38,743 bases of DNA from Rhodospirillales bacterium (GTDB lineage Bacteria > Pseudomonadota > Alphaproteobacteria > Azospirillales > Azospirillaceae), in contig PLTC01000140.1 in the NCBI GenBank assembly GCA_003165295.1, forward strand, positions 176 to 38,918. Reading direction: 5' to 3'. The notes under the pieces were generated by a model that was not told the origin of the DNA, did no database searches, and saw only the letters and a program-made list of their open reading frames with translations. The translations under genes and the position numbers were made by a program. Numbering within the stretch: position 1 is the stretch's first letter; the number at the start of each line of letters is the position of its first letter. This document shows positions 4,715 to 35,566 of the stretch, piece after piece.

Positions 4715-5935
4715 TCACCATTTGACCTCGGGGAACGGCGGCTGGTCGCCGGCCGGTTCGAGGTGACGGTTGATTCGTTCCGCGACGTAGGGAATCGTCC
4801 AGAGCCACAACGCCTCGCGCAGATAGAACACCGTCTTGTCCTGCATGGACAACTCCTGATAAAGCGCGCGCAGGATCGCGAAACCGGCCTGGATCTCGTT
4901 GACATCGAACACCTGCTTGCTGAGTCGGTCGATTTCAGTGGCCACGGACTCGCAAAGCGTGTCCCGCGAGGCGCTGTCGCTGTGGGCGATCTGGCTCTCG
5001 GTGAACAGGCAACCGCCCGGCCCGCCGGGACTGTAAAGCGCATCAATGCTCCGTTGGCGCCGCGCGTCCAGATCATTGAGCGCCGAGAGGAAGGCGCCAG
5101 GGGCCAGGTGACGCCCGTGGGGCGTGGTCGCCGGGTCGTCGAAGGCGTTGAGCGGGACCCAGCGCCGCTGGTCCCGCGGGGCCGAGAGGAGGGCGAATGC
5201 CCAGACGATCCCACCGGAGAGATAGACCCGCTTGTGGAGCGCCAGGTCGGGAAGGTGTGCCAGCTCCGCCCGGATCGCCGGACGCAACTCATGATCGATG
5301 ACCGAGGCCAGGGCGTCATCGTAGGACAGGCCGGGGTTCGGCCCTTGCGTCAGGTCCCTGGCCCGCTTTGCCAGTTGCTTTACGCCAAGTTCCCTCCACT
5401 CAAAAGGAATGTGTGGCGGCGTTCCCCGGGTGTTCAGGAAGTTGCCCTTGATGTTCCCGCTGCCAATATCGATCAGCACCACCTCGCGGCGGCGGGCTTT
5501 GATCAGGCCGGCAACCGCGCCGTCGAAGTTAAGCCGGGTTTCCGTTGATGCGGCCAGGATATCGGGATCAAGCCCAAGTCGCCGCGTAATGGCATCCCGC
5601 AACACGTTTTTGAACTGCTCCGTTTCAGCAAGCCCGCTGCTGACCACCACATAGATATGGCTGTGGTCCACGCGGTACTGATCCACCATTTCCACCACCA
5701 GACTATCGGCCTGCGCCAGCACCGCCGCCAGATTCGCCGGCGTGCCCGGAGCCTGTTCCAGCATCGGCAGTCGCGCCGCGATCTGCAAACCGCGGCTTTC
5801 GCCGTCCTCGACGACAAAGCCCCGGATCGCGCTGGTACTGAACTCGATCACGCCGTAGGGGGTCGCGAGCGCCGGAACCGATGTTGCAGATAACACTACG
5901 AAAAAAAGGCCGATCAGCAGGTACCGCAGTGTCAT
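4715..5935 (-). CDS. Exported actin-fold (ASKHA, Ppx/GppA-like) protein
   Basis: The protein is 406 residues from the ATG at 5935, which has AGGAG 8 nt upstream and lies 5 nt after the previous stop. A signal peptide (TLRYLLIGLFFVVLSATS, cleavage near PALA-T) leads directly into a Ppx/GppA-like actin fold. The phosphate-1 loop analogue is VIEFSTSAIRGFVV (29-42). A strand-helix block VVVSSGLAETEQF (96-108) and the turn STETRLNFDGAV (130-141) resemble the Ppx ATSAVR and EEAR segments. Phosphate-2 is VVLIDIGSGNIKGNF (152-166), and the adenosine-type loop is VYLSGGIVWAF (237-247). The usual first Asp is Glu here. An actin-fold nucleotidase-like domain sent to the periplasm is unusual, because its normal ligands (ATP, polyphosphate, pppGpp) are cytoplasmic; it may bind another phosphorylated ligand or act as a structural fold. 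It is the last gene of operon I. The fold is fairly sure; activity is unknown. Confidence 0.72.
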   Translation of the reverse strand: MTLRYLLIGLFFVVLSATSVPALATPYGVIEFSTSAIRGFVVEDGESRGLQIAARLPMLEQAPGTPANLAAVLAQADSLVVEMVDQYRVDHSHIYVVVSSGLAETEQFKNVLRDAITRRLGLDPDILAASTETRLNFDGAVAGLIKARRREVVLIDIGSGNIKGNFLNTRGTPPHIPFEWRELGVKQLAKRARDLTQGPNPGLSYDDALASVIDHELRPAIRAELAHLPDLALHKRVYLSGGIVWAFALLSAPRDQRRWVPLNAFDDPATTPHGRHLAPGAFLSALNDLDARRQRSIDALYSPGGPGGCLFTESQIAHSDSASRDTLCESVATEIDRLSKQVFDVNEIQAGFAILRALYQELSMQDKTVFYLREALWLWTIPYVAERINRHLEPAGDQPPFPEVKW

Positions 5936-5940
5936 GGCTT

Positions 5941-7368
5941 CTACTCCTGTCGCCAAAGCCCATTGCTTGGGTGTTGCCCGATACACTCTTTGTATGACTT
6001 CGGATTATCGCCTCGATCGAAACATACCCATACCACCAGCGGCGTCTGTTTCATAAGCACGTCATTGTCGCAGGTTATCTGCACCTTGCGAATGTCAGGC
6101 GTGTTAGGCTGTAGCTGAGACTTGTCTGCTGCCGTAACTGCTATGGTTGCGCGCTCCGGGCATCCTAAGAATAGCGACGACGGGGTTGCTCCATAGCTGA
6201 GAAACTGCTTTGGCCAGCTCACGTCTTCAATTTTCACATCATCGGTTCCAGGGTCGAGATTTGATCGGACGAGAACCGGGCAAACAAAGTTGTGGAGTTG
6301 ATCCATGCTCAAATCATTAAGTCTACCGGCGGTCGGGCAGCCGGCATTTTGCTCTCGACTTCGAGAAGGAGATGACAGGCTAAGGGATAAGTTTATCAGA
6401 TGTTTGTATTCTTCGGTGACCGTCTCGTTATCCTCGGACTCCGGCATTACGGTAAGAGTTTGTAGAAATTTTGAGCTTCCAACGGTTATATCGCAAGATT
6501 GCATTGGCCTGTCATTCCCCATGAGTTGATCGCCGGTACCCTCGCATCGCAAGCTGCCAATATTGGATTCATTCGCAGCATCAATACGAAAATCCTTGAT
6601 AACGAACGGAAAATTATTATTTGAATCATTGTTGCTGCGACTTTCAATTGCAATAGAAATATTATAACGCATTACCAAAGGATGAAATATAACAAACGCA
6701 CTGTTGCACGTCTCATTCTTTCCACTGATTGAGCAAAGCGGATTTATATGCTGGTGGTCAATGAGCCCGAGTTCAAGTCGGACTCCAGACTTAATCCAGG
6801 ATGGCTCTGTAACCTTAAGCGTATAAGTATATGATTCCCGCCTATGGCCGGTCGACCGTGTCGTTGGCTCGAAGGAAAAGCTTTTACCAGTCAAGGCATC
6901 CCAATTTAGTATACTGTCACTTGGTTGCTCTCCCGGGAAATTGAGCTTACTCGATGCGACAATAAAAACATCATCTTGAGAAATGCTCTCGCTGGAGTAT
7001 GATTGATCTTTTCTAATGAAGACAACGTAACGGTTCTCAGGGTGATACCTAGTCCCGACCGGGGCGTTGAACGTGATGCCAAATTGTTGAAAAAGTTGTT
7101 TTGCCCTGTTTGCCCCGGTATCGTCATATCGATTTACCGGCACATACCGGTCATACCGCGAATTACCATCCGGCATTTCAATAGGTTTAGCCGTAAAGAG
7201 TACGTCGGCCTCTGTTGGTGGCGATGGCGTCGGGACAAGTCCGGCACCAGATGCGGTATAAAACGCCGGAATTGCGACCATCGCAATGCCAATGGCCAAT
7301 ATTATCAGCCTTTTTGCACGGGGAGACGAAGCCAACCCGCCACGCATATCTTCATTTATTTTGAGCAT
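5941..7368 (-). CDS. Membrane-anchored periplasmic protein of unknown function, cysteine-rich
   Basis: Not recognised. From the ATG at 7368 (GAGG 9 nt upstream) it has 475 residues; an ATG at 7383 is the main alternative. One N-terminal TM (RLIILAIGIAMVAIPAFYTASG) anchors a long extracytoplasmic part rich in beta strands, with at least nine cysteines that look paired, for example NPLCSISGKNETCNS and a C-terminal VVWVCFDRGDNPKSYKECIG. No enzyme motif is visible. The gene is much poorer in GC than its neighbours (18 of 60 bases at 6601-6660). It lies between the two-TM protein and the actin-fold protein of operon I with gaps of about 22 and 5 nt, so co-translation and a shared envelope complex are likely. 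Confidence 0.7.
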   Translation of the reverse strand: MLKINEDMRGGLASSPRAKRLIILAIGIAMVAIPAFYTASGAGLVPTPSPPTEADVLFTAKPIEMPDGNSRYDRYVPVNRYDDTGANRAKQLFQQFGITFNAPVGTRYHPENRYVVFIRKDQSYSSESISQDDVFIVASSKLNFPGEQPSDSILNWDALTGKSFSFEPTTRSTGHRRESYTYTLKVTEPSWIKSGVRLELGLIDHQHINPLCSISGKNETCNSAFVIFHPLVMRYNISIAIESRSNNDSNNNFPFVIKDFRIDAANESNIGSLRCEGTGDQLMGNDRPMQSCDITVGSSKFLQTLTVMPESEDNETVTEEYKHLINLSLSLSSPSRSREQNAGCPTAGRLNDLSMDQLHNFVCPVLVRSNLDPGTDDVKIEDVSWPKQFLSYGATPSSLFLGCPERATIAVTAADKSQLQPNTPDIRKVQITCDNDVLMKQTPLVVWVCFDRGDNPKSYKECIGQHPSNGLWRQE

Positions 7369-7390
7369 TAAAGGCATCCTCATCGGCCTA

Positions 7391-8089
7391 TCACGGTCTG
7401 CGCTCATAGCAATCGTTGTCATCAGAAGTCGCGGTTTCGCAGGTGTCATTGCTCAAGTGTGATGAAAGTTCCTGAGACAACCTTTTAATGTGCCCCTCAC
7501 AGGCTTGGGCGTTGGTTAAAAGCGTCTTATACCACTCCGATGGTATATCGAAGTGTCCAGCCTCTCCGTTTCCGTTGTCGTTAACGTATTCTGGTTGTAG
7601 TTGTAGTAATGAGGCGGAGAGAGCTTGATAATTAATTATTAACTGCTTTAATTGCAGTAACTTACTGCCGCATGTGAGGAAGTATCCAGACTGAAATGCT
7701 TCTGAGATTCCAACCGAAGAAAGGAAATAGAATCCGAGGGAGCCAATTTTAGCTCTATGAGCATGGTCATAAAATTCAATCAAATTTACTTCACTGAGCC
7801 TCCGAATATTATTATCAAGCTCCTGCGTTGATATTGTAATAAGCGCCTTGCGCTTGTCGATGTCCTTTATCGTTTCAACATGGTCCGTCGCCAGGAGGGT
7901 GACGCTGGTTACCATAAAAGCCGGCATTACTGCGATTATCGCGGTCACCCGATATTGCAGTATTGGATTCTTGCCATATCGCTGTAGCAGGCGATGCAGC
8001 CGGGCGCTAAAGCCAATTGTTCCAATAGTCAACAGCACGGAAAAAATAGCGAGTCCAACTAGGGTGGTATGTGTTACAAGTCCCGACAT
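7391..8089 (-). CDS. Small membrane protein with two N-terminal TM helices, unknown function
   Basis: Not recognised. The protein has 232 residues; the ATG at 8089 has a strong AGGAG 6 nt upstream. TM1 (about 8-28, TLVGLAIFSVLLTIGTIGFS) and TM2 (about 46-68, VTAIIAVMPAFMVTSVTLLA) are followed by a helical domain of about 160 residues with possible coiled-coil character (TISTQELDNNIRRLSEVNL). The acidic C-terminus contains two cysteines. With two TMs the C-terminal domain lies on the same side as the short N-terminus. Base composition is AT-rich like the next gene. It belongs to operon I, 50 nt after the vWA gene. Confidence 0.7.
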   Translation of the reverse strand: MSGLVTHTTLVGLAIFSVLLTIGTIGFSARLHRLLQRYGKNPILQYRVTAIIAVMPAFMVTSVTLLATDHVETIKDIDKRKALITISTQELDNNIRRLSEVNLIEFYDHAHRAKIGSLGFYFLSSVGISEAFQSGYFLTCGSKLLQLKQLIINYQALSASLLQLQPEYVNDNGNGEAGHFDIPSEWYKTLLTNAQACEGHIKRLSQELSSHLSNDTCETATSDDNDCYERRP

Positions 8090-8139
8090 ATTACACTCCT
8101 ATTATTACGTCTTGTTAAAATTTATCACGCATCTAGGTC

Positions 8140-9900
8140 TTATTCCTCCCGATACAACACCGTTGCAACCGTGGTCGCATTCGGCTTCGCTTCGAGCGTT
8201 TGGGACAGCAGGGGCGGCTGACCGGTGCCCATGGTGGCTTCGAGGGTGTAGAAGCCTGGGCGGACTCTGATGTCGTCGCCGGTCCAGGGGCGGGGACTGG
8301 CGGCGGGGTTCGCGGGAATCAGGCGCCAATGCAGGGCGGCGGCCTTGGCCGGGGCGATCGGAGCGCCGTCGGCGTTGATCACCCGGTGCCGGACCACGGG
8401 GGCGCAGAAGCGGTAGTTAACCGCCACGGTTTCATTACCGGCCACCTCGAAGTCCTGGGAGGTGATGGGCGCCAATCCCCACGACGCCGCGACCCGGTAT
8501 CGGCCCGGGGGCAGGGAAATGTCGAGGGCTCTGGCGCCCCGGTAGTGCTCGACGACCGAACCGGCGGGCTCGATCCGGTAAACCAGCAACTCGATCTCCC
8601 TTTGCAGGGCGTCGAGCTCAGCCGGCACATTCCAGCCGTCGATGGCGGCCGACACCATGAGGCGGCCGTTGGGTTGGTCCACCGTGAAGGTCACGGCGGC
8701 GTCCCCTTCAACTGCGAGGTGAACGTCCCGGAGTTGGGGCGGACCGCCATTGGCCTCCAGGGAAATCCGATAGTCTCCCGGTTCCAGGACCGCCTTCACG
8801 GCCCGTCCGGTCCCGCGGGCGGCGACGGAGCTGTCGGTGCGGCGGACCGTCCAACGCAGGCCGGTCTCGTTTGCCGCGCCGGTGCCGGCTGCGGTCATGG
8901 TCAGGTGGCTGGCCCCCAACTCCACCACCACCGGTTTGTTGTCGCCCGGGACCAGGTCCACCCATTGTTCATGGGGTGGGCCGTTGCTGCCCGACGCCGC
9001 CGTGACCACCAGCCGGTAATGCCCCGGCGGGACCTCGAAGACGCCGGTTCCGTCGCGGGTTGCGGGCGTCGCCGGCGACTCGGGTTCAGGGACAAGAGTC
9101 GCTTTGAGAACGCTGCCGCCGGCCGGTGGCACCGGCAGGTGCTGCGGGCCGACGATCGCGGACCAACCCAGCCGGGCCGGTGGCGGCGGCCGGTCAAGGC
9201 AGGTCGCGCTGCGCATCGCCGCGCGCAGGTCTTCCCGACTGTAGGCATCGAACAGCTTGCCATGGCTGCGCTGGGTGAAACAGGCGAGTTCCGGGAGCGA
9301 CTCGCGACTGGCCCGGAAGCCGATGATGTCCACCAACGCCACGGTTCCGGCAGCGGCGTAAGCCCCCGAGGCGCTGCAAGGATCCTTGCGGCAGGCGTCG
9401 GGCTCCTCCTTGCCGTCGGAGATCAGGACCACCTTGGCGTGATGAGGGCGGGCAAGGTCATTGGCGCGAAGCAAGGCATCGGTAATCGGGGTGGTGCCAA
9501 TGGGCAGCAACCGCTTCAACTGGTCATCGATCCGTGCCGCCACCGTGGATTTCGGGCCGCTGTCCACCACCGTTTCAATACTGTCACAAGAGCCCCGATT
9601 CCGGTGGCCGTAGGCGATGACGGCGATCTCCGTCCGGTCGGGAAGCTCCGAGACCAGACGGCGAAATTCATCCCGCAAAATTTCGTAACGGGTCCGGCTG
9701 ACGCCGTGATCGTCCACAGGCGCCCACATGCTGCGGGAATAATCGAGAACGAACACCAACGAAGAGGGCGGCCCGTCGCACCGTTCGTCGGCCCGTCCGA
9801 CGCCGCTTACCGCGGCGACCGCGACTCCGGCCAACATCGCGGCCATGCCCGACCGATGACGACGGCCGTTGCCGCCTTTCCCGGCCCGAATATCGTCCAT
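8140..9900 (-). CDS. Exported von Willebrand factor A domain protein with C-terminal beta-sandwich domains
   Basis: From the ATG at 9900 (TGATG overlap with the upstream stop, GGGAGG 6 nt before) it has 586 residues. An N-terminal signal segment (SGMAAMLAGVAVAAVSGVGRA) is followed by a vWA domain with a complete metal-ion-dependent adhesion site: DYSRSM in the first strand, GTTPITDAL for the Thr, and LISDGKEE for the second Asp. CRKDPCS and later single cysteines suggest disulfides. The remaining 350 residues are several repeats ending in PGxYR, such as VPPGHYRLVV, EPGDYRISLE and LPPGRYRVAA, the pattern of small carboxypeptidase-regulatory or Ig-like beta sandwiches. vWA domains bind protein partners through Mg2+. 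In operon I it follows the metal-site-deficient paralogue-like protein. Confidence 0.88.
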   Translation of the reverse strand: MDDIRAGKGGNGRRHRSGMAAMLAGVAVAAVSGVGRADERCDGPPSSLVFVLDYSRSMWAPVDDHGVSRTRYEILRDEFRRLVSELPDRTEIAVIAYGHRNRGSCDSIETVVDSGPKSTVAARIDDQLKRLLPIGTTPITDALLRANDLARPHHAKVVLISDGKEEPDACRKDPCSASGAYAAAGTVALVDIIGFRASRESLPELACFTQRSHGKLFDAYSREDLRAAMRSATCLDRPPPPARLGWSAIVGPQHLPVPPAGGSVLKATLVPEPESPATPATRDGTGVFEVPPGHYRLVVTAASGSNGPPHEQWVDLVPGDNKPVVVELGASHLTMTAAGTGAANETGLRWTVRRTDSSVAARGTGRAVKAVLEPGDYRISLEANGGPPQLRDVHLAVEGDAAVTFTVDQPNGRLMVSAAIDGWNVPAELDALQREIELLVYRIEPAGSVVEHYRGARALDISLPPGRYRVAASWGLAPITSQDFEVAGNETVAVNYRFCAPVVRHRVINADGAPIAPAKAAALHWRLIPANPAASPRPWTGDDIRVRPGFYTLEATMGTGQPPLLSQTLEAKPNATTVATVLYREE

Positions 9901-11111
9901 CACGGTCCTCCCTGGCAAATTTGCGCGGTCCGCTCGCCAAGGCCGGCCATCATGCCCGGGGTGGCCTTCGTGCCCGGATCGCCGCCGCCAGGCGCCGCGG
10001 CCAGGTGCCTGATGTCGGGCTGGTCAGCGCAGTGGCCGGGCATGACCTGAATGTCCTGAAGTTGCAGCGCCACCGAGCTTGGACGGGCCGCCGGCGGTGG
10101 CGGCGGCTCCGGCTTTGGCGGCCCGCCGCCGCCGCCATTCGGGGGGGCGGGAACCGGCGTCTGGGGCGCCGCCGCATGTTGCCCCGATGTCCCGTTGGCG
10201 CCGCCGCCGCTGCCCCCCGGATCGACGGGCACCATCGGTGCGACCGCCCCCGCGGATTGCGTCGAACAGGCGGGCAACTGCGTCGGTGATGCCGAGACGG
10301 CGCGGGTGGTGCAGGATCCGCTGAAGTCCGGTGGGTCGAAGCGAACCGGCTGAGCAGCATCCGGGCAGTCAAGTAGCCCCTGTCCCCGGAATATGACCTC
10401 AGGCTGGTTGTTCTGGCGCCTGCGAAGGTCTGCCAGCACGTCTAGGAAACGCAGCGTCTCGGGCGGAATGACCCGTCCCTGACCGGGGACCAGCACGGTA
10501 ATGTCCAACCGGAAGGGGCTGTCAACGATCTCCTTGAGCCGCGGATACCGCACTTCGGGGCCGGAAAAGCAGGGCGCCGTTGCGTAGTATTGATCGCCCG
10601 ACTTCACGTCATTGGACATGCTGTCGGTTACGATGTAAATTTTGATCGTTTTGGCCTGTTCCAGCGCCATCGGCGTCAGCGTCGTTTTTATCTGATCAAA
10701 GTAGCTGTGATGGTGCTCAATCGCCAAGGCGATCGCGTACAGCAGCTCAAGCTCAGTACGTCTATCATGAAGAGAAATTCGCGCCTCAAGTGCGCGCATT
10801 CTCTGCATCGTGTCCGCGACGAATTGTTCAGGCGCTTGCGCCTCGTCCTTAACAAAGGAATTCCCGGTGGTCCAACTGATGATCTGAAAGGAGTTCGAGC
10901 GCGGCAGGTGCCGCGCCAACGCAACGAACGATTGAAAGTTCTGATCCCTGGCCAGGACGTCGGGCGGAGTCTCCAGGTGGAACAGGGATCCGTTAACGAT
11001 TATCGCCTGGCCGAACCATTCCTGTGCCCGGCAGGGATTGCAGAGCCACGGCGCCATCACCACCAGCACGGAGAATATCACCGCGACAGAAAGCAGGGGA
11101 CCTTGCCGCAT
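9900..11111 (-). CDS. Exported protein with vWA-like fold lacking the metal site and proline-rich tail
   Basis: It is read as 403 residues from the ATG at 11111 (GAGGG 5 nt upstream; ATG 11114 is the neighbour alternative). Signal peptide is LLSVAVIFSVLVVMAPWLCN with cleavage near CRAQ. Residues about 30-240 alternate strands and helices in vWA order: strand AIIVNGSLFHL, helix FQSFVALARHLP, strand FQIISWTTG, a long helix block, strand IKIYIVTDSMSND, then LDITVLVPGQG and a helix. The first-strand DxSxS is absent, so no canonical metal site is expected (inference). After that comes a low-complexity Gly/Pro linker (PKPEPPPPPAARPS). The last 60 residues contain CADQ and QICQ, a possible disulfide. 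It is the first gene of operon I and overlaps the intact vWA gene by one base, consistent with a pair acting together. Confidence 0.65.
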   Translation of the reverse strand: MRQGPLLSVAVIFSVLVVMAPWLCNPCRAQEWFGQAIIVNGSLFHLETPPDVLARDQNFQSFVALARHLPRSNSFQIISWTTGNSFVKDEAQAPEQFVADTMQRMRALEARISLHDRRTELELLYAIALAIEHHHSYFDQIKTTLTPMALEQAKTIKIYIVTDSMSNDVKSGDQYYATAPCFSGPEVRYPRLKEIVDSPFRLDITVLVPGQGRVIPPETLRFLDVLADLRRRQNNQPEVIFRGQGLLDCPDAAQPVRFDPPDFSGSCTTRAVSASPTQLPACSTQSAGAVAPMVPVDPGGSGGGANGTSGQHAAAPQTPVPAPPNGGGGGPPKPEPPPPPAARPSSVALQLQDIQVMPGHCADQPDIRHLAAAPGGGDPGTKATPGMMAGLGERTAQICQGGP

Positions 11112-11123
11112 CATCACCCTCAA

Positions 11124-11473
11124 TCATCTACATCTCTGATGTGCGCCCCACACCTGGCCACGCCGTTTAAACCGATACCGGGGCTCCGTGCCCGGAACGA
11201 CCGTCACTTCTCTAATAGCTACCATTGAGAAAACGCGATCGGCAAGAGTTATGACTTATAATATCGCCTTATCAGACCAAGCATGCATATGCATGCCTTG
11301 AATAATCAGACGAAGCCATTGATTAGACCCGCGCCGCTCGATCAGCGCTTCAATCAGCGCCGGGATTATAGTATCGCTGTTGGGCTGACGGCACGATCGG
11401 TTTGGCAGGATCCAACCGGCGCGCTTGGATGGCGATGCGTTGCGGACCGTGCCGTCAATGAGGAGATCGGACC
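11124..11473. promoter_or_regulatory. Divergent promoter region of operons I and II
   Basis: These 350 nt carry no gene and separate two divergent transcription units. They are AT-rich between 11215 and 11310. A perfect TATAAT lies at 11257-11262 (plus) without a good -35. A second -10-like TATAGT is at 11367-11372. A 16-bp palindrome is at 11281-11296. Direct repeats ATCAGACCAAGC (11271-11282), ATCAGACGAAGC (11305-11316), and ATCAGCGC twice (11341-11348, 11353-11360) follow the same start word. The weak -35 elements suggest that an activator is needed. Confidence 0.6.
11281..11296. promoter_or_regulatory. Perfect 16-bp palindrome, candidate operator
   Basis: GCATGCATATGCATGC reads identically on both strands and lies about 19 nt downstream of the TATAAT at 11257-11262, where a regulator could control the start of operon II and block or activate operon I. 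Twelve of its first 13 bases recur at 35706-35718 in the promoter region upstream of operon III. No regulator gene sits beside it; the LysR gene at 37734 is the only transcription factor in the window and has no evident link. Confidence 0.5.
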
Positions 11474-14400
11474 ATGCTGGGTGATGAATTTCGACCTACT
11501 TTGCTGGTCGGTGTCGGCGGCACCGGGTGCGTCATTGCCGAAGAGGTGTATGCTACGGCGTTGTCAATGGGGGCCAACCGCGGCGGTAAAATAGCGGTGA
11601 TCGGCATCGACACCGACGAAAACGACATGCGGCGCCTGAGTGACCTCGACAAGCGGCAGCAAATTCGCTTCAGTTCCTCCGAAACCATTTCCCGCCTGAT
11701 CACCCAGCTCCGTGATTACCTGTCGGGATGGTTCGTCGATGAGGAGACGCTGCCGGCGGAAATCCGCTCCATGACCTTACTTGATGGCGCGATGCAAATA
11801 CGAATGCTGACCCAACTGGCACTTTACGACGCGGTGCTGCGCAGTCAATTTGTCGATAAGATGGAACGGGCGGTTGCCCAACTGGGCCTCCTGGACAGCC
11901 GCGAAGTTCAAAGCGGCGGCATTAATATTATGATGGTCGGTTCCCTTGCCGGGGCGACCGGTAGCGGTTCATTCCTGCAAATTGCGCTGCTGTTGCGTGA
12001 CATTTGCCAGCGCCGTCGCCTCGAAGGCGCCATTCGAGCGATTTTTCTGCTCCCCGACGTCTTCGTCCGTGGCGCGAATCTGCCCGCCGAACAGATAGAA
12101 AATATCTATGCCAACGGCTATGCCAGCATCAAAGAACTGAATGCCGTTAATCTGAAGGTTACGGGGCGGATTGACCGTGGCGACTTCGAGTACCAGTTTG
12201 CGCCCGGATACCCGTTGCGTCGGGACGCAATGCCGTTCAACAGCGTCACGTTCATCGACTGGGAGAATTTAACCGGCGGCAATCTTGGACGAAATATTGT
12301 TTATTATCGGAAAATGACCGCCCGGGCGGTCTATCTTCAACTGTTCAGTCCGATCGGCCAACGCCTTCAAAGTGTTACCGTTAATGATGCCCGAGCTAAA
12401 ATGGCGGCGGCGGCCGCCGGCAGTACCGAAATTTACTCGGGCGTCGGCGTCAGCGCCGTCGTCTACCCGGCTGAGGGAATAAAAAACTATCTCAGTCGCC
12501 AACTGGCCCTGATCAGTCTTTCCGGCGATTGGTTGCGACTGGATTCGTTATTTATTGATCGGGTCCGTCGTTATAATGACGATAAGGCCGCGGGAAATCT
12601 CTCGGTCAGGGCGCCCGTTCGCGGTCTCAGCTACGTCGAGGATTTGGAGCGGTTGTCGAAGGACAGGGTATTATTCTTTCGGGATATCTTCGATAAGAGC
12701 AACCATGAAATCGAAATGAAAACGGGTGAGCGCGAGTTGCGGCCATTTCATATCGATTATCTTGACTCCCTGCTCGAAAAAATTTCTTTTGATTTCTGGG
12801 ACGCCAACGATGACCTGAAAGCAATCGCGGAATTACTGAAGAAGCCGCTGGTCGATGACAACCTTAAGAACACCAAGACGTTGGCAGAAACCACTCAGCG
12901 CTGCGAACGTCAACTGGACCGTAGTTTGACCATACTTGAATCGGCGCTGCGAACAAAGCCGATCGACCTGTTTTTTAATCTCCAATCGGCGGGGGAGTCG
13001 GGGAGCGAGGCGGAGTGGAAAATCCATAATATACAAGCCCACGTCATTGCCGGCGGCCCTCATCTGGTGCAGGTACGCTATTTTCTGTACAAGGCGTTGG
13101 CGGAACTCGAACGCCGACTGGCTGGCCTGTCGGTCAAGGTGGCGCGTGACCAGCTCTTTAAAGTGGCAAACGCCTTCCGGCGTGACCCCGATGAAATGGA
13201 GAGTCCGACCAGTCGCGGAGCCCCCGAGGTGTTGGAGGAGGCGCGCAACGCCGTCAATCCCGGCCTGTGGAAGGCTATGTGGGCGGGCGATGGCGGCTTT
13301 CGGATAAAATATACCAGCTATTACAATTCTTCATTGCGGGGCCTGCTGGCCTATGTTGAGACCTCTGTCCGCAGCACGGTGCTGACCGCGTTGCGGGACG
13401 AGCTTGAATCGTTAACCCGTGAAGTTGAAGGCGTGTTCCAGACTCTGGCGGATTTTCGGGATCGGCTGGCGGCAGATGTTGAGCGACTGGAAGCGGAACA
13501 TGAGAGAGGTGCAGGCACCTTCGACGGGAATGTCTTTGTCTGCGCCACCAAGATCTGCAAGAAGTCCCTGTGGAAGGAACTCTCCGAAGCAACTACCGGA
13601 CTGGGACTGTCGTCGCAGGCCAATCGGACGCTGGCGGATGCTGTTTATCGGATATATCGCGACAAGCAGCGCAAGAAGGCGAATAAATCGGCAGGTGAGC
13701 TTCGAGATTTGTTGGAACGGGCGATTTTCGTTGATTTCGCCGGTAGGGCTCTGGCCAATTTTGTTTCGTTTCACGACTTTAGCGTGATTCGCGCGGTACA
13801 AAAGGAGGCCGAGATCGAGGGCGGTGACTGGTTGGACCGACTGCGCCATGCGGTGGATGTCGCCGGCAGCCAGTCCGAACCGTTCCTGCCCTTGCTGTCA
13901 CGCGATGCCGGACAACGAATTATGTTTTGGGCGATTCATCCAGATACGCGCGTTGATGTCGGTGATGATCGTCAATTTGATCAATTGTTCACCGCCAACC
14001 AGGGAGAAAGCCCGTTGGTCCTTGAAGAATTTTCCAGGCAGGAACTCTTGTGCATGAATACAAGGGTCAATCTCAATCTTCGTGAGTTACAAAAACTCTA
14101 TCCCGGCGAGACTCGGAACGGAATGGCGGTGATGCGTCCCGGAATTTACTACAACGCATATAAAAATATGACAGATGCCATTGCAGCCGCCGAGCTGAAA
14201 GATCCACGGCGGCCAAAATCTCGATATTTCACTCCTCATGTGCATAAGGACTGGCACAGGCCGGGCGCGATACCGGAAATATTTGCAGAACTTGATGATA
14301 ACATTAGAGACAAAACGTATCAATCCTTTGTTGCCGGGTTGGCCATCGGGGTGCTCCTTAAGGCCATGCACTACGGCAAAGAGCGGACGCTGGTCCGAAC

Positions 14401-14920: not shown

Positions 14921-14949
14921 GCTGGTCATTCCTGCCGCGGGAGGTGCGC

Positions 14950-23346: not shown

Positions 23347-23397
23347 GGCCATTATCGGGCCGGCCGGACCAATCCAGTGGCTATAATCCAGGATGCG

Positions 23398-26069: not shown

Positions 26070-26086
26070 GGGATGAGCCGAATACC

Positions 26087-28048
26087 CTAAAATAAGTCAA
26101 TCGGTGTCGTATTTCTTCTGATCGGAGTGTAGTGGATAACGGACAACCCAATCGTCAGGCAGACCATGCCGATTGCCCAGAAGATGACCAGGACATCCAA
26201 AACACTGAATGGCATGGTTACGATAACACTTTGAGACCCCAATTTGGTCACGGCAAGATCGTAGGCGGCCGAAAAAGTAAAGAAAAAATTTATAACCAGC
26301 GACAGAAATATGATTATTACAACCGGTAGCAGCATGCCGATTGCGGTACTCAGGGTAAGTTGAATCGCGATCATCGACCTGATATCGCGACTGGTCATTC
26401 CTTGCGCCAAAAGAAGACCGTATTGCTCGCGGCGCCGCTGAATTAAGGTGTACAGAGTCAGGCTCATCAGGTAGAGCATAAGCCCGCCAAACACCGCCAG
26501 CAGCGGCCAGGCCATCCACGCAAGTAATTTCTGTAAAAAATCAAAGCGCAACAGGCTTTCTTCGTAGGACCTCTCAAATTGAAAGGCGCGAATGCCGGGC
26601 TGGTCGGGGCTTTCGAAGGTTTTCAAGGCATCGACCACCGCAATAATATCGTTCCGATCGCCCATCGAGACCGTCGCGGCATTCAGGTTGGCCCAGGTCT
26701 CGATTCGCCCTTTGGCACGCCGGGCATCATCGTTACCGGCCAGGCAATCGCTGTTGTATCGCTGGCCAAGGTCGCGACGGGGAAGGCTGGGGCAGGGCAG
26801 CGTCAGCCAGCCGTCGCCGGCATATCCGTAGGCGACCACCCTTTGCCGGTCACCTGAAAGGACGGTGCCGGCGGCGTTCGCCCCGGTCGAGTTGAGACAG
26901 GAGGTCACGAAGCGTTCGGGCAACGGCGGCGACAGAGTCATCACCACATCCTCAAAGCCGTGTCCCGGGATGGGCGGCATGCCGACCCGTTTGCCGAGAC
27001 ACAGGGCCAGGGAATGGACAATTTCCCGGCGTTTTTCCGGTGTGATATCCAACCCGGACGAGCCCACGATCCGAACCTTTCCGATGCGACCGGCCTCGGA
27101 CCCGGTCGCTCCGGGGAAATAAGGCAGGTCGTTGACCCGGCTGTGGCCGAACGCGCGGACCAGCGCGAGCGGCGCCACGAACGAGACATTGGGTTCGGCG
27201 CTCAGGCTTTCTGCCCAACGGACCTCGAAGGGAATGAGTTCCTGGTTTTCCCCGATGCCGATGGAAAGCCAAAAGACCCGCGGGCCGGTATGTCGGGGCG
27301 TCGCACCCGAACCTTCGGCCGCAGCCGCTCCGCGACCGGTACAATCGGGAGTTATTTCGCCGACCGGGGGAAAGTTGTGCGCGAAGTCTTCGGCGACCTG
27401 GGGGGGCAGCAGCGCCGCAAGTGCCGCAAGATAGGCGTTGCGGTTCAGGTGACCGAAATTGTCACGGTTCAGGATCAACTGTGGTCGGAGTTCCGAGGTC
27501 GGGGCCGCCGCGCTGCCGAAGCACCGCCGCCATAACGGATCATCCTCGAGCACCGCCCAGCCTTCGAATTTGAGGGGACGGCCGCCTGCCTGGGTATCCC
27601 AGACGTCCGGCGACGGCAGGTCAATGGTGTGGTCCGAGGCGTCGATGAACTGGTAGGGGTGAAGGACCAGTCCGCGAAATCGTGGGTCTCCGGCCCCTGC
27701 CGCCCGAGACCGGAAGTCGGTGATGACGGTCCGATCGATACGGTTGATCCTGGCCACATTGCCGACCACCTGAATCCCGATCCCTTCCTGGGGATCCTTG
27801 CCGAGCATGACATCGGCCAATTGGACGACGAAGCCGCGCTGAAGCGATAAAAAAAGCAGGCAAACCAGCGCGATAAAAGATATAAATCCCGTAAAGGCGA
27901 TGAAATCACGTCCGCAATGGGGACCGCTACGGACGAACAAGGCTTTCAGGCCGCCAATATACTCGGATATGCCGAGAAACATCCAAAGAGGATAGTCCGG
28001 CCAGCGGCTGATCGTGATCAGATGTCGGTGAAAAAAAGTGATCATCAT
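26087..28048 (-). CDS. ABC transporter permease, MacB/FtsX-type, with very large extracytoplasmic domain
   Basis: The protein has 653 residues from the ATG at 28048, which overlaps the ATPase stop as ATGA. Topology is one N-terminal TM (about 50-72, FIAFTGFISFIALVCLLFLS), about 430 extracytoplasmic residues, then three TMs (about 508-532, 562-590, 612-640). The cytoplasmic loop LIQRRREQYGLLLAQGMTSR followed by DIRSMIAIQL is the coupling motif of the MacB/FtsX/LolC (type VII) superfamily. These proteins transduce ATP-driven conformational change across the membrane and do not usually pump through a TM channel. The extracytoplasmic domain is larger than the roughly 200-residue MacB one and has several cysteines. 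It is the last gene of operon III, downstream of exported vWA proteins, so a mechanotransmission role is favoured over efflux. Confidence 0.82.
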   Translation of the reverse strand: MMITFFHRHLITISRWPDYPLWMFLGISEYIGGLKALFVRSGPHCGRDFIAFTGFISFIALVCLLFLSLQRGFVVQLADVMLGKDPQEGIGIQVVGNVARINRIDRTVITDFRSRAAGAGDPRFRGLVLHPYQFIDASDHTIDLPSPDVWDTQAGGRPLKFEGWAVLEDDPLWRRCFGSAAAPTSELRPQLILNRDNFGHLNRNAYLAALAALLPPQVAEDFAHNFPPVGEITPDCTGRGAAAAEGSGATPRHTGPRVFWLSIGIGENQELIPFEVRWAESLSAEPNVSFVAPLALVRAFGHSRVNDLPYFPGATGSEAGRIGKVRIVGSSGLDITPEKRREIVHSLALCLGKRVGMPPIPGHGFEDVVMTLSPPLPERFVTSCLNSTGANAAGTVLSGDRQRVVAYGYAGDGWLTLPCPSLPRRDLGQRYNSDCLAGNDDARRAKGRIETWANLNAATVSMGDRNDIIAVVDALKTFESPDQPGIRAFQFERSYEESLLRFDFLQKLLAWMAWPLLAVFGGLMLYLMSLTLYTLIQRRREQYGLLLAQGMTSRDIRSMIAIQLTLSTAIGMLLPVVIIIFLSLVINFFFTFSAAYDLAVTKLGSQSVIVTMPFSVLDVLVIFWAIGMVCLTIGLSVIHYTPIRRNTTPIDLF

Positions 28049-28845
28049 GGCCAGCTCCGGGCCGGTGGGACATTTTCGATTCCCAGCGTCGCCGGTTGTC
28101 CGGGTGATTTGACCAGTCGGATTCGCTTCGGCGCCTCGGTCAAATAGACATCGTCGGCATGGTGGGTTACCCACACCACCGCCGATTGCCCGCTGCCAAT
28201 GTTCAGGAACCCGAACACCCGCTCCATGACCCGCCGACGGGTGTCGTCATCAAGGTGACCGGTGGGCTCGTCGGCGAACAGGATGGTCGGTCGGGAGATG
28301 ACCGCCACGCCCAGGGCCACCCGTTGCCGTTGCCCTCCCGATAACTGGTTCGGGTACTGGTCGCCCAGAAAGCGATGGTCGGACTCGGGTACGGTGATCG
28401 CGTCGAGGACCTGATCCACGCGATCGGAGATGACCGGGTTCGCCATTTTGCGCAACCGCAGGGGCCAGCCAAGATTCTCGCGGACCGTCAGGAACGGCAG
28501 CAATGCACTGTTCTGGAAGGCAAAACCAAAGCGATCGCGGCGCAATTGATGCCAATGCGGTGGCGGCATCGAGCCGGACGCGCCGGTCGTGAACGACACG
28601 GTTTCGCGCCCGTCGGGAAACACCCAGTCGATACCGCCCCGGCGCGGCCATTTGAGGCAGGCCAGGGCGTACAGGAATGTACTCTTCCCGGTTGCGGTTC
28701 TGCCGACAATCGGCAATCTATACCGGAAGTCGGCGAAATCCAGCACCAAGGTGGGACACACCACCTGATCCCGTATCGGAGTTTTCTCGGTCCAGGATAA
28801 CGCCAGATCCGTCAGCCTCAATCCGAACGCCATGGCTGCGGTCAC
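28045..28845 (-). CDS. ABC ATPase partner of the MacB/FtsX-type permease
   Basis: It is read as 266 residues from GTG 28845, which overlaps the upstream TGA (GTGA) and has GGAG 8 nt before it; ATG 28833 is the alternative. Motifs are Walker A VGRTATGKST (47-56), Q-loop FAFQNSALLPFLTVRENLGW, signature LSGGQRQRVALG, Walker B ILFADEPTGHLDD and switch VVWVTHHADDVYL. The DEPTG-LD form and the VRENL sequence are typical of the MacB/LolD/FtsE group. All catalytic residues are present, although Walker A GRTATGKST is an uncommon variant. It is translationally coupled to the permease (ATGA) and to the vWA gene upstream, so the three form one module. Confidence 0.9.
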   Translation of the reverse strand: MTAAMAFGLRLTDLALSWTEKTPIRDQVVCPTLVLDFADFRYRLPIVGRTATGKSTFLYALACLKWPRRGGIDWVFPDGRETVSFTTGASGSMPPPHWHQLRRDRFGFAFQNSALLPFLTVRENLGWPLRLRKMANPVISDRVDQVLDAITVPESDHRFLGDQYPNQLSGGQRQRVALGVAVISRPTILFADEPTGHLDDDTRRRVMERVFGFLNIGSGQSAVVWVTHHADDVYLTEAPKRIRLVKSPGQPATLGIENVPPARSWP

Positions 28846-31409
28846 GGCAGGAACTCCAGGGGGATCCAGTAAAAGGTCTCCTTCCCGCGCTTTGCCGCGT
28901 CATCCACATCACGCTGCGACTTTGGATTGCGATAGCTGTAGCGGTCGTCGGGGCCAAGCCGCTCCGGCTGGATGTAATCGGCCTGCACGGCGGGAACCGC
29001 CTGTCCCTTCGGGCTCAGAGCACATTGTAACTGGGGAAGATTTTCCGGTGGCCGGTAAACCGGCTTCCAGACGTTCGTCTCGACGATCTCCAGTCGTTTC
29101 GAGGCGGCGCGGGCCCAGCGGGCGAGGTGTTCCACCTCGCAGGGTTGGACGAGGGCGGCGTCCCACAGGTCATGCATGCTGTAGCGCATCAGTGGACTGA
29201 CCAGGGCGCCGGGCAGGAAGGTGTGTTCCAGCACCTGCTGGAGCGACTGCGCCGGATCCGCGGTGCCGACCAGTTGGTTCACGCTTTCGGTGACGGCCTG
29301 ACAGAACAGGTAGCGGGCGTCCTCGCCGGTCATCGGGCGGTCCAGGGGGCGGAGCAGGGTCTTCCATTGCCCCAACTGCCTGGGGGAGATCATGACCTCG
29401 GGGACCAGCGGCGAGCGTGCCCGCTCCTCAGGCGACTCGCCCAGGGTGTCCTCGACGACGAAGTCGGCTACCACGTCGAGCTGATCCTTGTGGCACTGCT
29501 CGCCCAGCTCCGGGCACAGCCGCTCTTGCGCGTTGAGCAACCATACCATCGGAACGTCCTTTTCGGTAAATTTGATCTCCTTGATGATGGTATCGAGTGA
29601 TTCGCCGGCGCGGACCTTGGTGGCAAGGGTGGCGGCGGTTCCCGGTCGGGTCAGGGCCGCCACCTGGGCGACCACCTTGTCGGCGACATCCTGTTCTTCG
29701 CGCCGGGAGGCGCTGGTCAGGGGAAAGAAGTGGCTCCTCGGTTCGACTTCGCTGCCGGCGTAAAGACCGGACAGGATGGCCAGGGCCTGGGAGCTGAACC
29801 AGTCGAAGGCCTTCTTGTAATCCCCGGGATTACTCTTGACGTCGTGGTTGAACGGTGGCTCGATGAAATACACCGCGACCGGCCCCTTGAAGCTCTTCTT
29901 CATCCGGTTGACCAGATCGCTCATCTCCACCGGCTTGAAGCCACGGTGGCGCTGCATGTCGGGGTCATAGCCGGCGTCGCCGATGATGAACAAGACCTTC
30001 AGGTTATCGGTGCAGCCGGTCATATCGGTCAACGCCTGGTCAATACCGCCGAAGGAGTTTTCCGCATAGTCCTCCAACTCGCCGTCAGTGGTTGGTACCG
30101 CCTTTGCCTCCACCGTAGATATGTTATCACGAAACTGCTTTTGCAGTTGTTCAGCCTGTTCCTGGGTCAAACGCCCGCACAAGTCCTCGGGTATCGTGTT
30201 GAACGGAAAGCTTTCGCGCATTCCAGCGTTGTGAGGACGCTTTACCGTGTCCGAATAGATGCGAAAGCCAAAGCGCAGACTGGCTCCCAATTGAATCTTG
30301 GCGTTCAGGCCATCGATGATGTGGCCGATCAGGCCGGTGGATTTGCCGAAACGATCGCCCTTGATGGCGGTCAACTCGGGGCCCATGCTCTCGGTACCGT
30401 CGATGGCGAAGAAAACGTCCACGTCCTTCAGCTTGCTGGTGGCGGTTTCCACCGCCTGCTGTCTGGCCGATGACTCCAGCCGCTGGGAATCGATGCCGAC
30501 CGCCGGTGCCGCGGTCCGGTAAAACGCCCGGCCGCCGATCCACGTCTTGGCCAGGATGGGCAGGCGCAAGGGGGTGCGGTACCACTCCGGCCCGCCCAGG
30601 ATGTGCTGACAGTCGCGCTGGGTCGCCGCATCTTCGGGGCGGTAGCCGCAGACATAGTCGTTCGGTTTCGGCAGGTCGTCACGCGGACGCAGGCCGATGG
30701 ACGAATCCCAGCGGATCACCTGATGACTGTCGATCCAGCCAACCAGTGGGTTGGCCCCGTCAAGGATCACGCTGTAGCCCAGCAACAGGCGGCCTCCAAC
30801 CTCGTCGAACACCACCAGGCGATCGAAACGTTGGAGTTGCACGCAGTTTCCCGGGCCGCAATTGTCGCCTTCGGAGGTGTTGTACGCCGTTACCGGAAGG
30901 GTCTGACCCCGTGGCGCCCAGGCGGTGCGGATAATCGCCTGGCGATAAGCGCCAATTTCGCAACTGAAATCACCGGCGGGGGCACGGCCCGATTCGAGGG
31001 GGCAGCTTTCGACCCGGAGTGGCCGGATTCCGCACTGGACCGCCCGTGCCTCAACCCAGCCAAGGCTGCCGAAAGTGAGATCGGCGACCTGCAATCTGGT
31101 ATTGCGATTGGGTTGGGGGGTGGCCGGAAAAAAGTCGGTGATTCGGACACCGGTATTGAAGGCCAGGGGCGGGACCGCTTCTTCGGTGCCGGTGGCCGTC
31201 CGGTAGACCTTGGTGGCGTCTTCCCGAATCCACGCCCAATGGTCCCAACCGAACGGTCCGGTCGGGGCCGCCGCCGTGGGCGGGCCGACACGGTGTCTGG
31301 TGAAGTCGACCCGGGCACAGGAGCCGGTATCGTCGTCGGACTCCGCCCGTGCCGGCGCCGCCCAGGCCCAGAGGGCGATCAATACCAGCAAAAACGCACC
31401 GCATCTCAT
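28842..31409 (-). CDS. Exported vWA protein with N-terminal SH3-like repeats
   Basis: The protein has 855 residues; ATG 31409 has GGGAG 6 nt upstream and follows the previous stop by 21 nt. The signal peptide is GAFLLVLIALWAWAAPARA. Residues about 25-250 contain two or three SH3-like units (LGWVEARAVQCG, VGWIDSHQVIRW) with disulfide-prone cysteines. The vWA domain starts near residue 335 with DVDVFFAIDGTESM (a DxTxS form of MIDAS) and continues to VLFIIGDAGYD and VAVYFIEPP. The last 250 residues are helical, with cysteines and no recognised domain. It is predicted periplasmic. Within operon III it sits directly before the ABC ATPase with a 4-nt overlap, suggesting it contacts the permease's large periplasmic domain. 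Confidence 0.82.
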   Translation of the reverse strand: MRCGAFLLVLIALWAWAAPARAESDDDTGSCARVDFTRHRVGPPTAAAPTGPFGWDHWAWIREDATKVYRTATGTEEAVPPLAFNTGVRITDFFPATPQPNRNTRLQVADLTFGSLGWVEARAVQCGIRPLRVESCPLESGRAPAGDFSCEIGAYRQAIIRTAWAPRGQTLPVTAYNTSEGDNCGPGNCVQLQRFDRLVVFDEVGGRLLLGYSVILDGANPLVGWIDSHQVIRWDSSIGLRPRDDLPKPNDYVCGYRPEDAATQRDCQHILGGPEWYRTPLRLPILAKTWIGGRAFYRTAAPAVGIDSQRLESSARQQAVETATSKLKDVDVFFAIDGTESMGPELTAIKGDRFGKSTGLIGHIIDGLNAKIQLGASLRFGFRIYSDTVKRPHNAGMRESFPFNTIPEDLCGRLTQEQAEQLQKQFRDNISTVEAKAVPTTDGELEDYAENSFGGIDQALTDMTGCTDNLKVLFIIGDAGYDPDMQRHRGFKPVEMSDLVNRMKKSFKGPVAVYFIEPPFNHDVKSNPGDYKKAFDWFSSQALAILSGLYAGSEVEPRSHFFPLTSASRREEQDVADKVVAQVAALTRPGTAATLATKVRAGESLDTIIKEIKFTEKDVPMVWLLNAQERLCPELGEQCHKDQLDVVADFVVEDTLGESPEERARSPLVPEVMISPRQLGQWKTLLRPLDRPMTGEDARYLFCQAVTESVNQLVGTADPAQSLQQVLEHTFLPGALVSPLMRYSMHDLWDAALVQPCEVEHLARWARAASKRLEIVETNVWKPVYRPPENLPQLQCALSPKGQAVPAVQADYIQPERLGPDDRYSYRNPKSQRDVDDAAKRGKETFYWIPLEFLP

Positions 31410-31430
31410 CGCGATCTCCCGTGGGCAGCC

Positions 31431-34247
<2,817 letters not shown>

Positions 34248-34270
34248 GGGGGCCTTCTCCAGAGGCAACA

Positions 34271-35566
34271 TCAAGGTTGGCTTTCCACCACGTAAAACCC
34301 GATGGTCGGCTGCGCGAACGCCGCGGCGACGCATTGAACGAGGGAACTGCCGGGAAGCGACGGGTCATGGCGGTCGAAGCCGGCGGCGAAGACCATGCGT
34401 TCCATCGAGTACGGATTGCAGTCGCTGGCGGTCCAATGGCGCTGATAGAGAGTAGTCCGCTGCACCGTCCACGCCGGCGGGTCGATATGCTCGATGCGTT
34501 CCTTGTCGCTCAGTATGTCCAGGGCCACGACCGTACCCAGCCACTCTTCAAGGGTGGGCAGCCGGGCCTGGCCGGTACCGGAGCGCCGCAGCGATCCGGC
34601 ATAGGCGGCGGCAAGACCCTGAGCAACGTCAACCACCGGCTGGACATCCACCGCGACCTGGGGATTCTGCCCCAGGCCGGACCTGGCTCCGACGCTGCGT
34701 TTCAGGACGGTCGGGTCGAGACCGGACCTGTTATAGAAGCCGGCAAAAGCCCCGGCCGTCACCGGCGCCGCCAACACGCAGAGGGAATTGCGAATGATTA
34801 CATCCCGGGGCAATTCCCTGTCGAGTCTCCCCGACTTGTTCAACAGGTCCTGGGTTAGCGGACCTGCCTGCGCCACGGAATAATGTCCGGCCGGAATCAC
34901 GATCCCGTCGGCGGTATCGATCCTGCACCGCTTATCGGGAATCTCGGTGCTGGTCCAGGTCCGCGGCATCGGGTCGGGGCCCGGCGTCGCCACCACCGGC
35001 GGGCAGACCGGCGGCGGCACGGCGGCCACCTGCGGCTCATGGTTCGCGCCGGCAATGTCGCTCAGGGTCAGCCGAAGCTTGTCGTTGTCGGCCTTGATCC
35101 GGTCGCGCTCGTCCGCCAACCTGGCGATTTCTGCGGTGCCGGCTTCGCACTGGTTATTGGCCTGATCGTCACGGTCCTTGTCACATTGCTTCAGGCTTTC
35201 CTGACAGGACTTGAGGTCGTGAAGCTCGCCGCGCGCCGCCTGTAGGCTCTCAAGTTCATGGCGCTGCTGCTCGAGCTGTTGCGCCTTGATCTGACTGTCC
35301 TGGCTCATCTGGTCCAGATGTTCCTGGAGTTGCCTGAGTTCCTGTTGCTTGTCGGCGATCTTCCGGCCGAGTTCGGCGTCCTGGCGGGCCTTGGTCGCCA
35401 ACGCATCGTCCAGGTCCTTCGCAACGCCTGCCTGGTAGCCCTGGACCGGCGCGCCGCCGCCGGCAGTGGTGTTCACCGCTTGCCCCAACGCCTCGTGGCA
35501 GGTTGTCACCAACAATGCGGCAAAAGCGGGCAGGAGAAAACCGGCGGGACGGCACTTGGTTGACAT
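34271..35566 (-). CDS. Exported coiled-coil protein with SUMF/FGE-sulfatase-like C-terminal domain
   Basis: From the ATG at 35566 it has 431 residues (GTG 35578 is the alternative). The signal peptide is FLLPAFAALLVTTC with cleavage near ALGQ. Residues about 50-165 form a Gln/Glu/Asp-rich coiled coil (KQQELRQLQEHLDQMSQDSQ). A short Pro-rich linker (VAAVPPPVCPPVVATP) leads to about 230 residues ordered like the formylglycine-generating-enzyme/SUMF family: CVLAAPVTAGAFAGFYNRSG (VTnxxyxxFxxxtG), PVVDVAQGLAAAYAGSL (PVxxVswxdAxxYaxWl), ARLPTLEEWLGTVVAL (RLPTEAEWEyAa), and a terminal GFYVVES (GFRVV). This C-type-lectin-like fold also occurs as a non-catalytic binding domain. It is the first gene of operon III and probably a periplasmic spacer or ligand-binding stalk. 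Confidence 0.7.
   Translation of the reverse strand: MSTKCRPAGFLLPAFAALLVTTCHEALGQAVNTTAGGGAPVQGYQAGVAKDLDDALATKARQDAELGRKIADKQQELRQLQEHLDQMSQDSQIKAQQLEQQRHELESLQAARGELHDLKSCQESLKQCDKDRDDQANNQCEAGTAEIARLADERDRIKADNDKLRLTLSDIAGANHEPQVAAVPPPVCPPVVATPGPDPMPRTWTSTEIPDKRCRIDTADGIVIPAGHYSVAQAGPLTQDLLNKSGRLDRELPRDVIIRNSLCVLAAPVTAGAFAGFYNRSGLDPTVLKRSVGARSGLGQNPQVAVDVQPVVDVAQGLAAAYAGSLRRSGTGQARLPTLEEWLGTVVALDILSDKERIEHIDPPAWTVQRTTLYQRHWTASDCNPYSMERMVFAAGFDRHDPSLPGSSLVQCVAAAFAQPTIGFYVVESQP

What the first reader, a model, noticed from the sequence alone, without database searches (positions are those of the whole stretch)
4715..35566. Three-operon envelope system built around a tubulin-like protein, vWA proteins, an actin-fold protein and a MacB-type ABC module
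Fifteen genes in three tightly packed units (operon I 11111-4715, operon II 11474-25686, operon III 35566-26087) encode a cytoplasmic tubulin-superfamily protein, two linking multi-TM proteins, five vWA-like domains outside the membrane, two paralogous exported proteins, a coiled-coil spacer and an ATP-driven mechanotransmission-type transporter. Start/stop overlaps, adjacent operons, shared promoter motifs and paralogy between operons II and III argue that they act together. FtsZ-like families linked to vWA proteins have been proposed as membrane-remodelling systems (Makarova and Koonin 2010, from memory), but I know of no description with these extra parts.
Basis: partly seen in the sequence, partly recalled or inferred. 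Interest (0 to 1): 0.87.

Follow-up and report, generated by a model that had tools for sequence, protein, structure and literature searches.

The report
Tubulin-like machine beside envelope-damage sensor
A soil-type bacterium carries, side by side and apparently under one switch, a known but unstudied tubulin-like envelope machine and a relative of the sensor that tells Pseudomonas its outer membrane is damaged, which suggests such sensors can be wired to machines other than the type VI secretion weapon.

Summary
The fifteen genes exist as described, but they are two modules, not one conserved three-operon system. (1) A core of tubulin-like protein, two membrane proteins and a membrane-anchored vWA protein (operon II genes 1-4), usually with a divergent exported vWA protein (I2), recurs in ten other proteobacterial loci. 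It is the FtsZl1/Tubulin_2-vWA system proposed in 2010. (2) Operon III is a separate module. All five genes recur in the same order on a Sagittula plasmid, four recur in a Tad-pilus locus, and neither place has a tubulin-like gene. Its vWA protein is a kinase-less homologue of the periplasmic part of PpkA. With its ABC ATPase, FtsX permease and SUMF1-domain protein, operon III resembles the TagQRST-PpkA envelope-damage sensor of the P. aeruginosa H1 type VI secretion system. In this genome coupling is still plausible: a promoter box found at only two places in 4.2 Mb lies at both operon groups, and operon II gained a paralogue of an operon III subunit. Best reading: a TPP-like sensor beside a tubulin-like machine.

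The parts
9900..11123 (-). I1, exported 407-aa protein in the divergent slot; in most relatives this slot holds a TAXI/NMT1_3 solute-binding protein instead
   Evidence: ORF; no family; relatives NMT1_3 in L028 and L041
8140..9918 (-). I2, exported vWA protein; conserved divergent partner of the tubulin core
   Evidence: VWA_2 E 5e-8; homologues in 6 core loci
7391..8089 (-). I3, 232-aa protein with two TM segments, low GC, found only here
   Evidence: GC 0.455; no homologue in core loci
5941..7449 (-). I4, 502-aa membrane-anchored protein, low GC, found only here
   Evidence: GC 0.478
4715..5986 (-). D, exported Ppx/GppA-like (actin-fold) protein
   Evidence: Ppx-GppA E 0.028, homologue E 4.8e-4, alignment of motifs
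11474..14920 (+). II1, tubulin-like protein of the FtsZl1/Tubulin_2 family
   Evidence: PF13809 E 1.1e-44; AF2 and Foldseek to CetZ/TubZ/FtsZ
14944..16992 (+). II2, core membrane protein with a TM hairpin at 457-522
   Evidence: family in 10 loci; TM scan
16989..20612 (+). II3, core protein with about 6 N-terminal TM segments and a large C-terminal region
   Evidence: family in 10 loci
20593..23346 (+). II4, core vWA protein: signal peptide, DxSxS, C-terminal TM 775-793 and short tail
   Evidence: family in 10 loci
23377..25686 (+). II5, exported paralogue of III2; absent from all other tubulin-core operons
   Evidence: hhalign E 4.5e-7 to III2; no hit in core loci
34271..35578 (-). III1, exported coiled coil plus C-terminal FGE/SUMF1 domain (TagR-like composition)
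   Evidence: PF03781 24.3 bits against cut-off 23.3; Sagittula orthologue
31431..34334 (-). III2, exported 967-aa subunit
   Evidence: orthologue in Sagittula, partial in G013, G109
28842..31409 (-). III3, exported SH3-like/vWA protein, kinase-less homologue of the PpkA ectodomain
   Evidence: hhalign E 5.1e-13 prob 97.9; DxTxSM and C-terminal signature; blind search
28045..28845 (-). III4, ABC ATPase (TagT-like position)
   Evidence: ABC_tran E 2.3e-21; orthologue in Sagittula E 9e-37
26087..28048 (-). III5, FtsX-type permease with large periplasmic domain (TagS-like); likely start at 28048 gives an ATGA overlap with III4
   Evidence: PF02687 E 1.5e-7; hhalign to TagS family E 1.8e-5 prob 78; start
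11281..11296 (.). 16-bp palindrome GCATGCATATGCATGC between operons I and II
   Evidence: GCATRCATATGCA occurs at only two places in 4.2 Mb
35706..35718 (+). second copy of the box, GCATACATATGCA, upstream of operon III
11163..11171 (+). shared word CCGTTTAAA (its partner is at 35620-35628)
11400..11409 (+). shared word GTTTGGCAGG (its partner is at 35788-35797)

Best explanation
The locus couples two envelope modules. The effector side is an FtsZl1-type machine: a cytoplasmic tubulin-like GTPase family member on an inner-membrane platform (II2, II3), with a membrane-anchored vWA protein facing the periplasm (II4) and an exported vWA partner (I2). The sensor side, operon III, is a divergent, kinase-less relative of the TagQRST-PpkA envelope sensor: a SUMF1-domain protein on a coiled coil (III1), a large exported subunit (III2, with paralogue II5 in operon II), the PpkA-ectodomain homologue III3, and an ABC/FtsX pair (III4, III5) that would use cytoplasmic ATP to move periplasmic parts. 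Inferred working: outer-membrane or periplasmic disturbance changes the III1/III2-III3 complex, with the ABC pair resetting or amplifying it. Since III3 has no kinase, the signal would pass by contact to II4/II3 and so recruit or orient tubulin-like polymers at that spot to remodel or repair the envelope. Shown: the genes, the homologies, the conserved order, the shared promoter box. Inferred: what is sensed, contact between III3 and II4, polymerisation, remodelling.
For: Core operon: Tub, 682, 1207 and vWA917 in ten loci, with divergent I2 in six. Operon III: same five genes in order in Sagittula and four in order in G109. III3 against PpkA-ectodomain profile: prob 97.9, E 5e-13, against at most 1.3% for the window's other vWA proteins. 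Both families share DxTxSM and the very C-terminus [YFW]x[VI]Pxxx[LM]P, present in 33 of 2467 ORFs held, all III3 or PpkA relatives. A profile made only from operon III vWA proteins pulled five new loci from the order, and all five are PpkA-ectodomain genes beside TagR-like and mostly TagS-like genes. Gene order vWA-ABC-FtsX is the same as PpkA-TagT-TagS. Coupling here: GCATRCATATGCA only at these two promoter regions in the genome; three collinear shared words, 5 of 1000 shuffles; II5/III2 paralogy. Function of relatives: TagQRST/PpkA senses outer-membrane damage (PMC11881912) and TagQ/TagR trigger local assembly (PMC6657622).
Against: The two modules do not co-occur elsewhere: 0 of 10 tubulin-core genomes or records have III3 and 0 of 3 operon-III records have Tubulin_2. 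No TagQ-like lipoprotein, kinase, phosphatase or FHA gene was found in the window. The similarity of III1 to TagR is only at the level of Pfam FGE (profile comparison not significant), and III4 is no closer to TagT than to other ABC ATPases. The promoter box was defined from the two sites themselves, so its uniqueness is partly circular. No experiment on any FtsZl1 protein was found in the library.
Confidence: 0.5

Rival explanations
1. Two independent envelope modules lie next to each other in a horizontally acquired island and do not work together.
For: Each module occurs without the other in every other genome checked. Cluster GC is 0.598 against about 0.66 in the flanks, and I3/I4 are near 0.46, as in an island built up piece by piece.
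Against: Promoter box shared only by these two regions in the genome, collinear shared words, and an operon III-type subunit added to the end of operon II.
Confidence: 0.32
2. Operon III is an exporter or extractor of the MacB/LolCDE type that delivers the secreted proteins of operons I and II; the vWA and SUMF1 proteins are its periplasmic partners.
For: FtsX fold permease plus ABC ATPase; best NCBIfam hits of the ATPase are FtsE and LolD, far below cut-offs.
Against: No MacA-like adaptor and no fused ATPase. The vWA partner is specifically of the PpkA-ectodomain family, and in that family the ABC pair is a signalling module (PMC6657622).
Confidence: 0.12
3. The whole cluster is an anti-phage or conflict system.
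For: Patchy distribution, often plasmid-borne.
Against: No meaningful PADLOC match apart from coiled-coil similarity; nearly all parts are envelope proteins; no nuclease, toxin or immunity gene recognised.
Confidence: 0.04

Closest known systems
FtsZl1/Tubulin_2-vWA predicted membrane-remodelling system (Makarova and Koonin 2010, PMC2875224)
   Same: Tubulin_2 protein with long helical C-terminal part, in an operon with vWA and uncharacterised membrane proteins
   Different: No kinase, diverged GTPase or OmpA gene in the window; has operon III, D, I3, I4 and II5 in addition
TagQRST-PpkA threonine phosphorylation pathway of the P. aeruginosa H1 type VI secretion system
   Same: PpkA-type SH3-vWA ectodomain, ABC ATPase, FtsX permease and SUMF1-domain protein in one operon; order vWA-ABC-FtsX
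   Different: No kinase domain, no TagQ lipoprotein, no PppA, Fha or TagF in the window, no type VI genes beside it; extra subunits III2/II5; much larger permease ectodomain
SrfABC-TagQRST-PpkA neighbourhood of host-associated Deltaproteobacteria (PMC3608642)
   Same: A PpkA/TagQRST set outside type VI secretion; in the similar loci seen here (L124-L130, L144) PpkA is also kinase-less
   Different: Partner genes are SrfA/B/C, not a tubulin-like system; TagQ present; Tag genes much closer to those of Pseudomonas
Operon on Sagittula stellata E-37 plasmid NZ_CP155730 (unnamed)
   Same: All five operon III genes in the same order
   Different: Followed by coiled-coil and MotA/ExbB-like genes; no tubulin-like gene on that record

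Membership tests
FtsZl1/Tubulin_2 | N-terminal Tubulin_2 domain above curated cut-off | tested here: met
   153.6 bits against 27
FtsZl1/Tubulin_2 | FtsZ/tubulin fold of the N-terminal domain | tested here: met
   Foldseek to CetZ, TubZ, FtsZ, prob 1.0, TMt 0.31-0.43; E 9.5e-4 at best
FtsZl1/Tubulin_2 | Coiled-coil middle and mostly helical C-terminal domain | tested here: met
   long helices such as 607-674 in the model; pLDDT 71, low in parts
FtsZl1/Tubulin_2 | Operon with a vWA protein | tested here: met
   II4 and divergent I2, conserved in relatives
FtsZl1/Tubulin_2 | GTP-dependent polymerisation | not testable with these tools
   not shown for this family in the papers read; T6-H7 elements reported as not identifiable (PMC2875224)
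TagQRST-PpkA pathway | PpkA-type periplasmic vWA domain | tested here: met
TagQRST-PpkA pathway | ABC ATPase and FtsX-type permease next to it, order vWA-ABC-FtsX | tested here: met
   (permease E 1.8e-5, prob 78)
TagQRST-PpkA pathway | SUMF1-domain TagR | tested here: inconclusive
   FGE/SUMF1 Pfam domain in both, but profile comparison with TagR not significant
TagQRST-PpkA pathway | Ser/Thr kinase domain on PpkA | tested here: not met
   III3 begins with a signal peptide; no kinase gene found in the window
TagQRST-PpkA pathway | TagQ outer-membrane lipoprotein | tested here: not met
   no similarity of III1 or III2 to TagQ
TagQRST-PpkA pathway | Linked type VI secretion genes, Fha, PppA, TagF | tested here: not met
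   none recognised in the window; the two TagF matches in the genome lie on other contigs
MacA-MacB exporter | ATPase fused to FtsX permease, with MacA adaptor | tested here: not met
   separate genes, no adaptor found

The most novel reading that the evidence does not exclude
The TagQRST/PpkA-ectodomain set is a general plug-in envelope-damage sensor that bacteria attach to different machines (type VI secretion, SrfABC, Tad-like pilus, FtsZl1 tubulin-like system). Here a kinase-less version directs a tubulin-like cytoskeletal machine to sites of envelope damage by protein contact, without phosphorylation.
Probability: 0.3. Interest if true: 0.82.

Novelty: new variant of a known kind. Interest (0 to 1): 0.62.

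Why it matters
No function has been shown for the widespread Tubulin_2 family in the papers I found. A sensor relative with a known trigger (outer-membrane damage) beside and apparently co-regulated with such a system gives a concrete, testable stimulus. It also suggests that the TagQRST-PpkA sensing logic is broader than type VI secretion and can work without its kinase.

Tried and rejected
PDB sequence searches with profiles of II1, II2, II3, II4 and with III1, III3 gave nothing useful. AF2 of II2 was too poor to use (pLDDT 50). A defence-system reading was rejected (PADLOC). A MacB label was rejected for lack of MacA and fusion. Direct profile similarity of III1 to TagR or of III2 to TagQ was not found. 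The C-terminal half of III3 alone does not match PpkA above shuffles; only the short terminal signature does. A possible FGE-like end on a kinase-like protein in G109 was suggestive only (E 0.004, prob 8; Pfam finds no family). Homology of I1 to the TAXI proteins in its slot was not found.

Full report
ANATOMY. The window lies in an Azospirillaceae-like genome (relatives with the core include Azospirillum ramasamyi and A. cavernae). Fifteen genes in three packed units were confirmed at the stated places. Operon I (minus): I1, I2, I3, I4, D. Operon II (plus): II1 tubulin-like, II2, II3, II4, II5. Operon III (minus): III1 coiled coil plus FGE/SUMF1, III2, III3 vWA, III4 ABC, III5 FtsX. Annotated starts of several genes are probably too early; III5 likely starts at 28048 with an ATGA overlap. 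Cluster GC is 0.598 against about 0.66 in the flanks; I3 and I4 stand out at 0.455 and 0.478.

THE TUBULIN CORE IS KNOWN. II1 is a Tubulin_2 protein (E 1e-44). An eight-sequence AF2 model (pLDDT 71) matches CetZ, TubZ and FtsZ. A genome-contig scan gave twelve loci. Iterated profiles found II2, II3 and II4 homologues in ten loci each, and divergent I2 in six. The other divergent slot is a TAXI/NMT1_3 solute-binding protein in relatives such as L028 and L041, and I1 is unrelated to it. This is the FtsZl1-vWA arrangement of Makarova and Koonin (PMC2875224), which they proposed to be a membrane-remodelling system. A later study set these sequences aside as a divergent group with a separate history (PMC9871819). 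D, I3, I4, II5 and operon III are not found in those loci.

OPERON III IS A SEPARATE MODULE. Searching III3 in 82 family genomes and 385 class genomes gave full-length homologues only in G013 and G109 besides the window. A plasmid search added Sagittula stellata. In Sagittula all five genes recur in order (the III3 pair is). In G109 III2, III3, III4, III5 recur in order inside a Tad-pilus-like locus that also has an FHA-like gene. In G013 only III3 and part of III2 are seen before the contig ends. None of these three records has a Tubulin_2 gene, although for Sagittula only the plasmid was searched. Conversely none of ten core-bearing genomes or records has III3.

OPERON III AND THE TYPE VI DAMAGE SENSOR. 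Searching TagF led to type VI loci with PpkA-TagT-TagS-TagR-TagQ. III3 matches the PpkA ectodomain, and a search with that ectodomain found more relatives in 398 genomes. Many of these have no kinase and sit in TagT-TagS-TagR-TagQ operons beside SrfB and SrfC. With that larger family III3 scores prob 97.9, E 5e-13, while I1, I2, II4 and III2 score at most 1.3%. III5 matches the TagS family at E 1.8e-5, prob 78. III1 and TagR share the FGE/SUMF1 Pfam domain only. III4 is an ordinary ABC ATPase, no closer to TagT than to others. Two further features tie III3 to PpkA: the DxTxSM motif and a C-terminal signature [YFW]x[VI]Pxxx[LM]P-stop, found in 33 of 2467 ORFs held, every one a III3 or PpkA-ectodomain relative (several loci overlap, so the 33 are not all independent). 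As a blind check, a profile from four operon III vWA proteins only was searched in 82 genomes. Its five additional hits all turned out to be kinase-less PpkA-ectodomain genes. TagR-like genes are beside all five, TagS-like genes beside four, and TagT-like genes were detected beside two of them. The C-terminal half of III3 alone does not match PpkA above shuffles, so the homology claim rests on the SH3-vWA part and the signature.

PRIOR KNOWLEDGE OF THAT SENSOR. In P. [quoted passage not shown] PMC6657622). The set outside type VI secretion, beside SrfABC, was reported for host-associated Deltaproteobacteria (PMC3608642). I found no report of it beside a tubulin-like system.

ARE THE MODULES COUPLED HERE? 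For: the I/II divergent region and the region upstream of operon III share, in the same order and orientation, CCGTTTAAA, a GCATRCATATGCA box and GTTTGGCAGG. The exact-match chain is reached in 5 of 1000 dinucleotide shuffles, and in 12 of 2000 and 8 of 2000 comparisons of each region with random genome pieces, though random pairs of genome pieces reach it more often, 143 of 2961, probably through repeats. The box occurs at no third place in the 4.2 Mb genome; this is partly circular since the pattern was drawn from the two sites. II5 at the end of operon II is a paralogue of III2 (E 4.5e-7) and is absent from all other tubulin operons. Against: no second genome with both modules. I put functional coupling at about one half.

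MECHANISM. Shown by sequence: components, likely locations, homologies, order, shared box. Inferred: sensing of envelope damage by III1/III2/III3, energy input by III4/III5, transfer to II4 and II3 by contact because there is no kinase, and local action of II1 polymers. D, an exported Ppx/GppA-like protein, has a homologue beside Ser/Thr kinases, PP2C phosphatases, FHA and OmpA genes in A. lipoferum 4B, which fits an envelope-signalling theme but proves nothing.

Noticed in passing
window 1984-4533 (-): Complete ABC importer (NMT1-like binding protein, permease, ATPase) downstream of D on the same strand; the relatives' TAXI protein is also of the NMT1 kind, which may be coincidence.
   Followed up: no
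window 35809-37611 (+): PGA_cap/CapA-like gene divergent from operon III, sharing the region that holds the promoter box, so it may belong to the same regulon.
   Followed up: no
window 5941-8089 (-): I3 and I4 have GC near 0.46 in a genome near 0.66, so they look recently acquired although they sit inside operon I.
   Followed up: partly
L141-L145 and L124-L130: Kinase-less PpkA-ectodomain genes with Tag genes (TagR-like in all, TagS/TagT-like and TagQ-like in many), several beside SrfB/SrfC, occur in Azospirillaceae and other Proteobacteria.
   Followed up: partly
L053-L054 (G109): Operon III-type genes inside a Tad/Flp pilus-like locus with two TadA-type ATPases, an FHA-like protein and a kinase-like protein.
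   Followed up: partly
L108 (A. lipoferum 4B plasmid): Cluster of FHA, PP2C, Ser/Thr kinase, OmpA and DUF4384 genes ending in a homologue of D.
   Followed up: partly
L038: A contig binned as Turicibacter carries tandem copies of tubulin-core genes.
   Followed up: no
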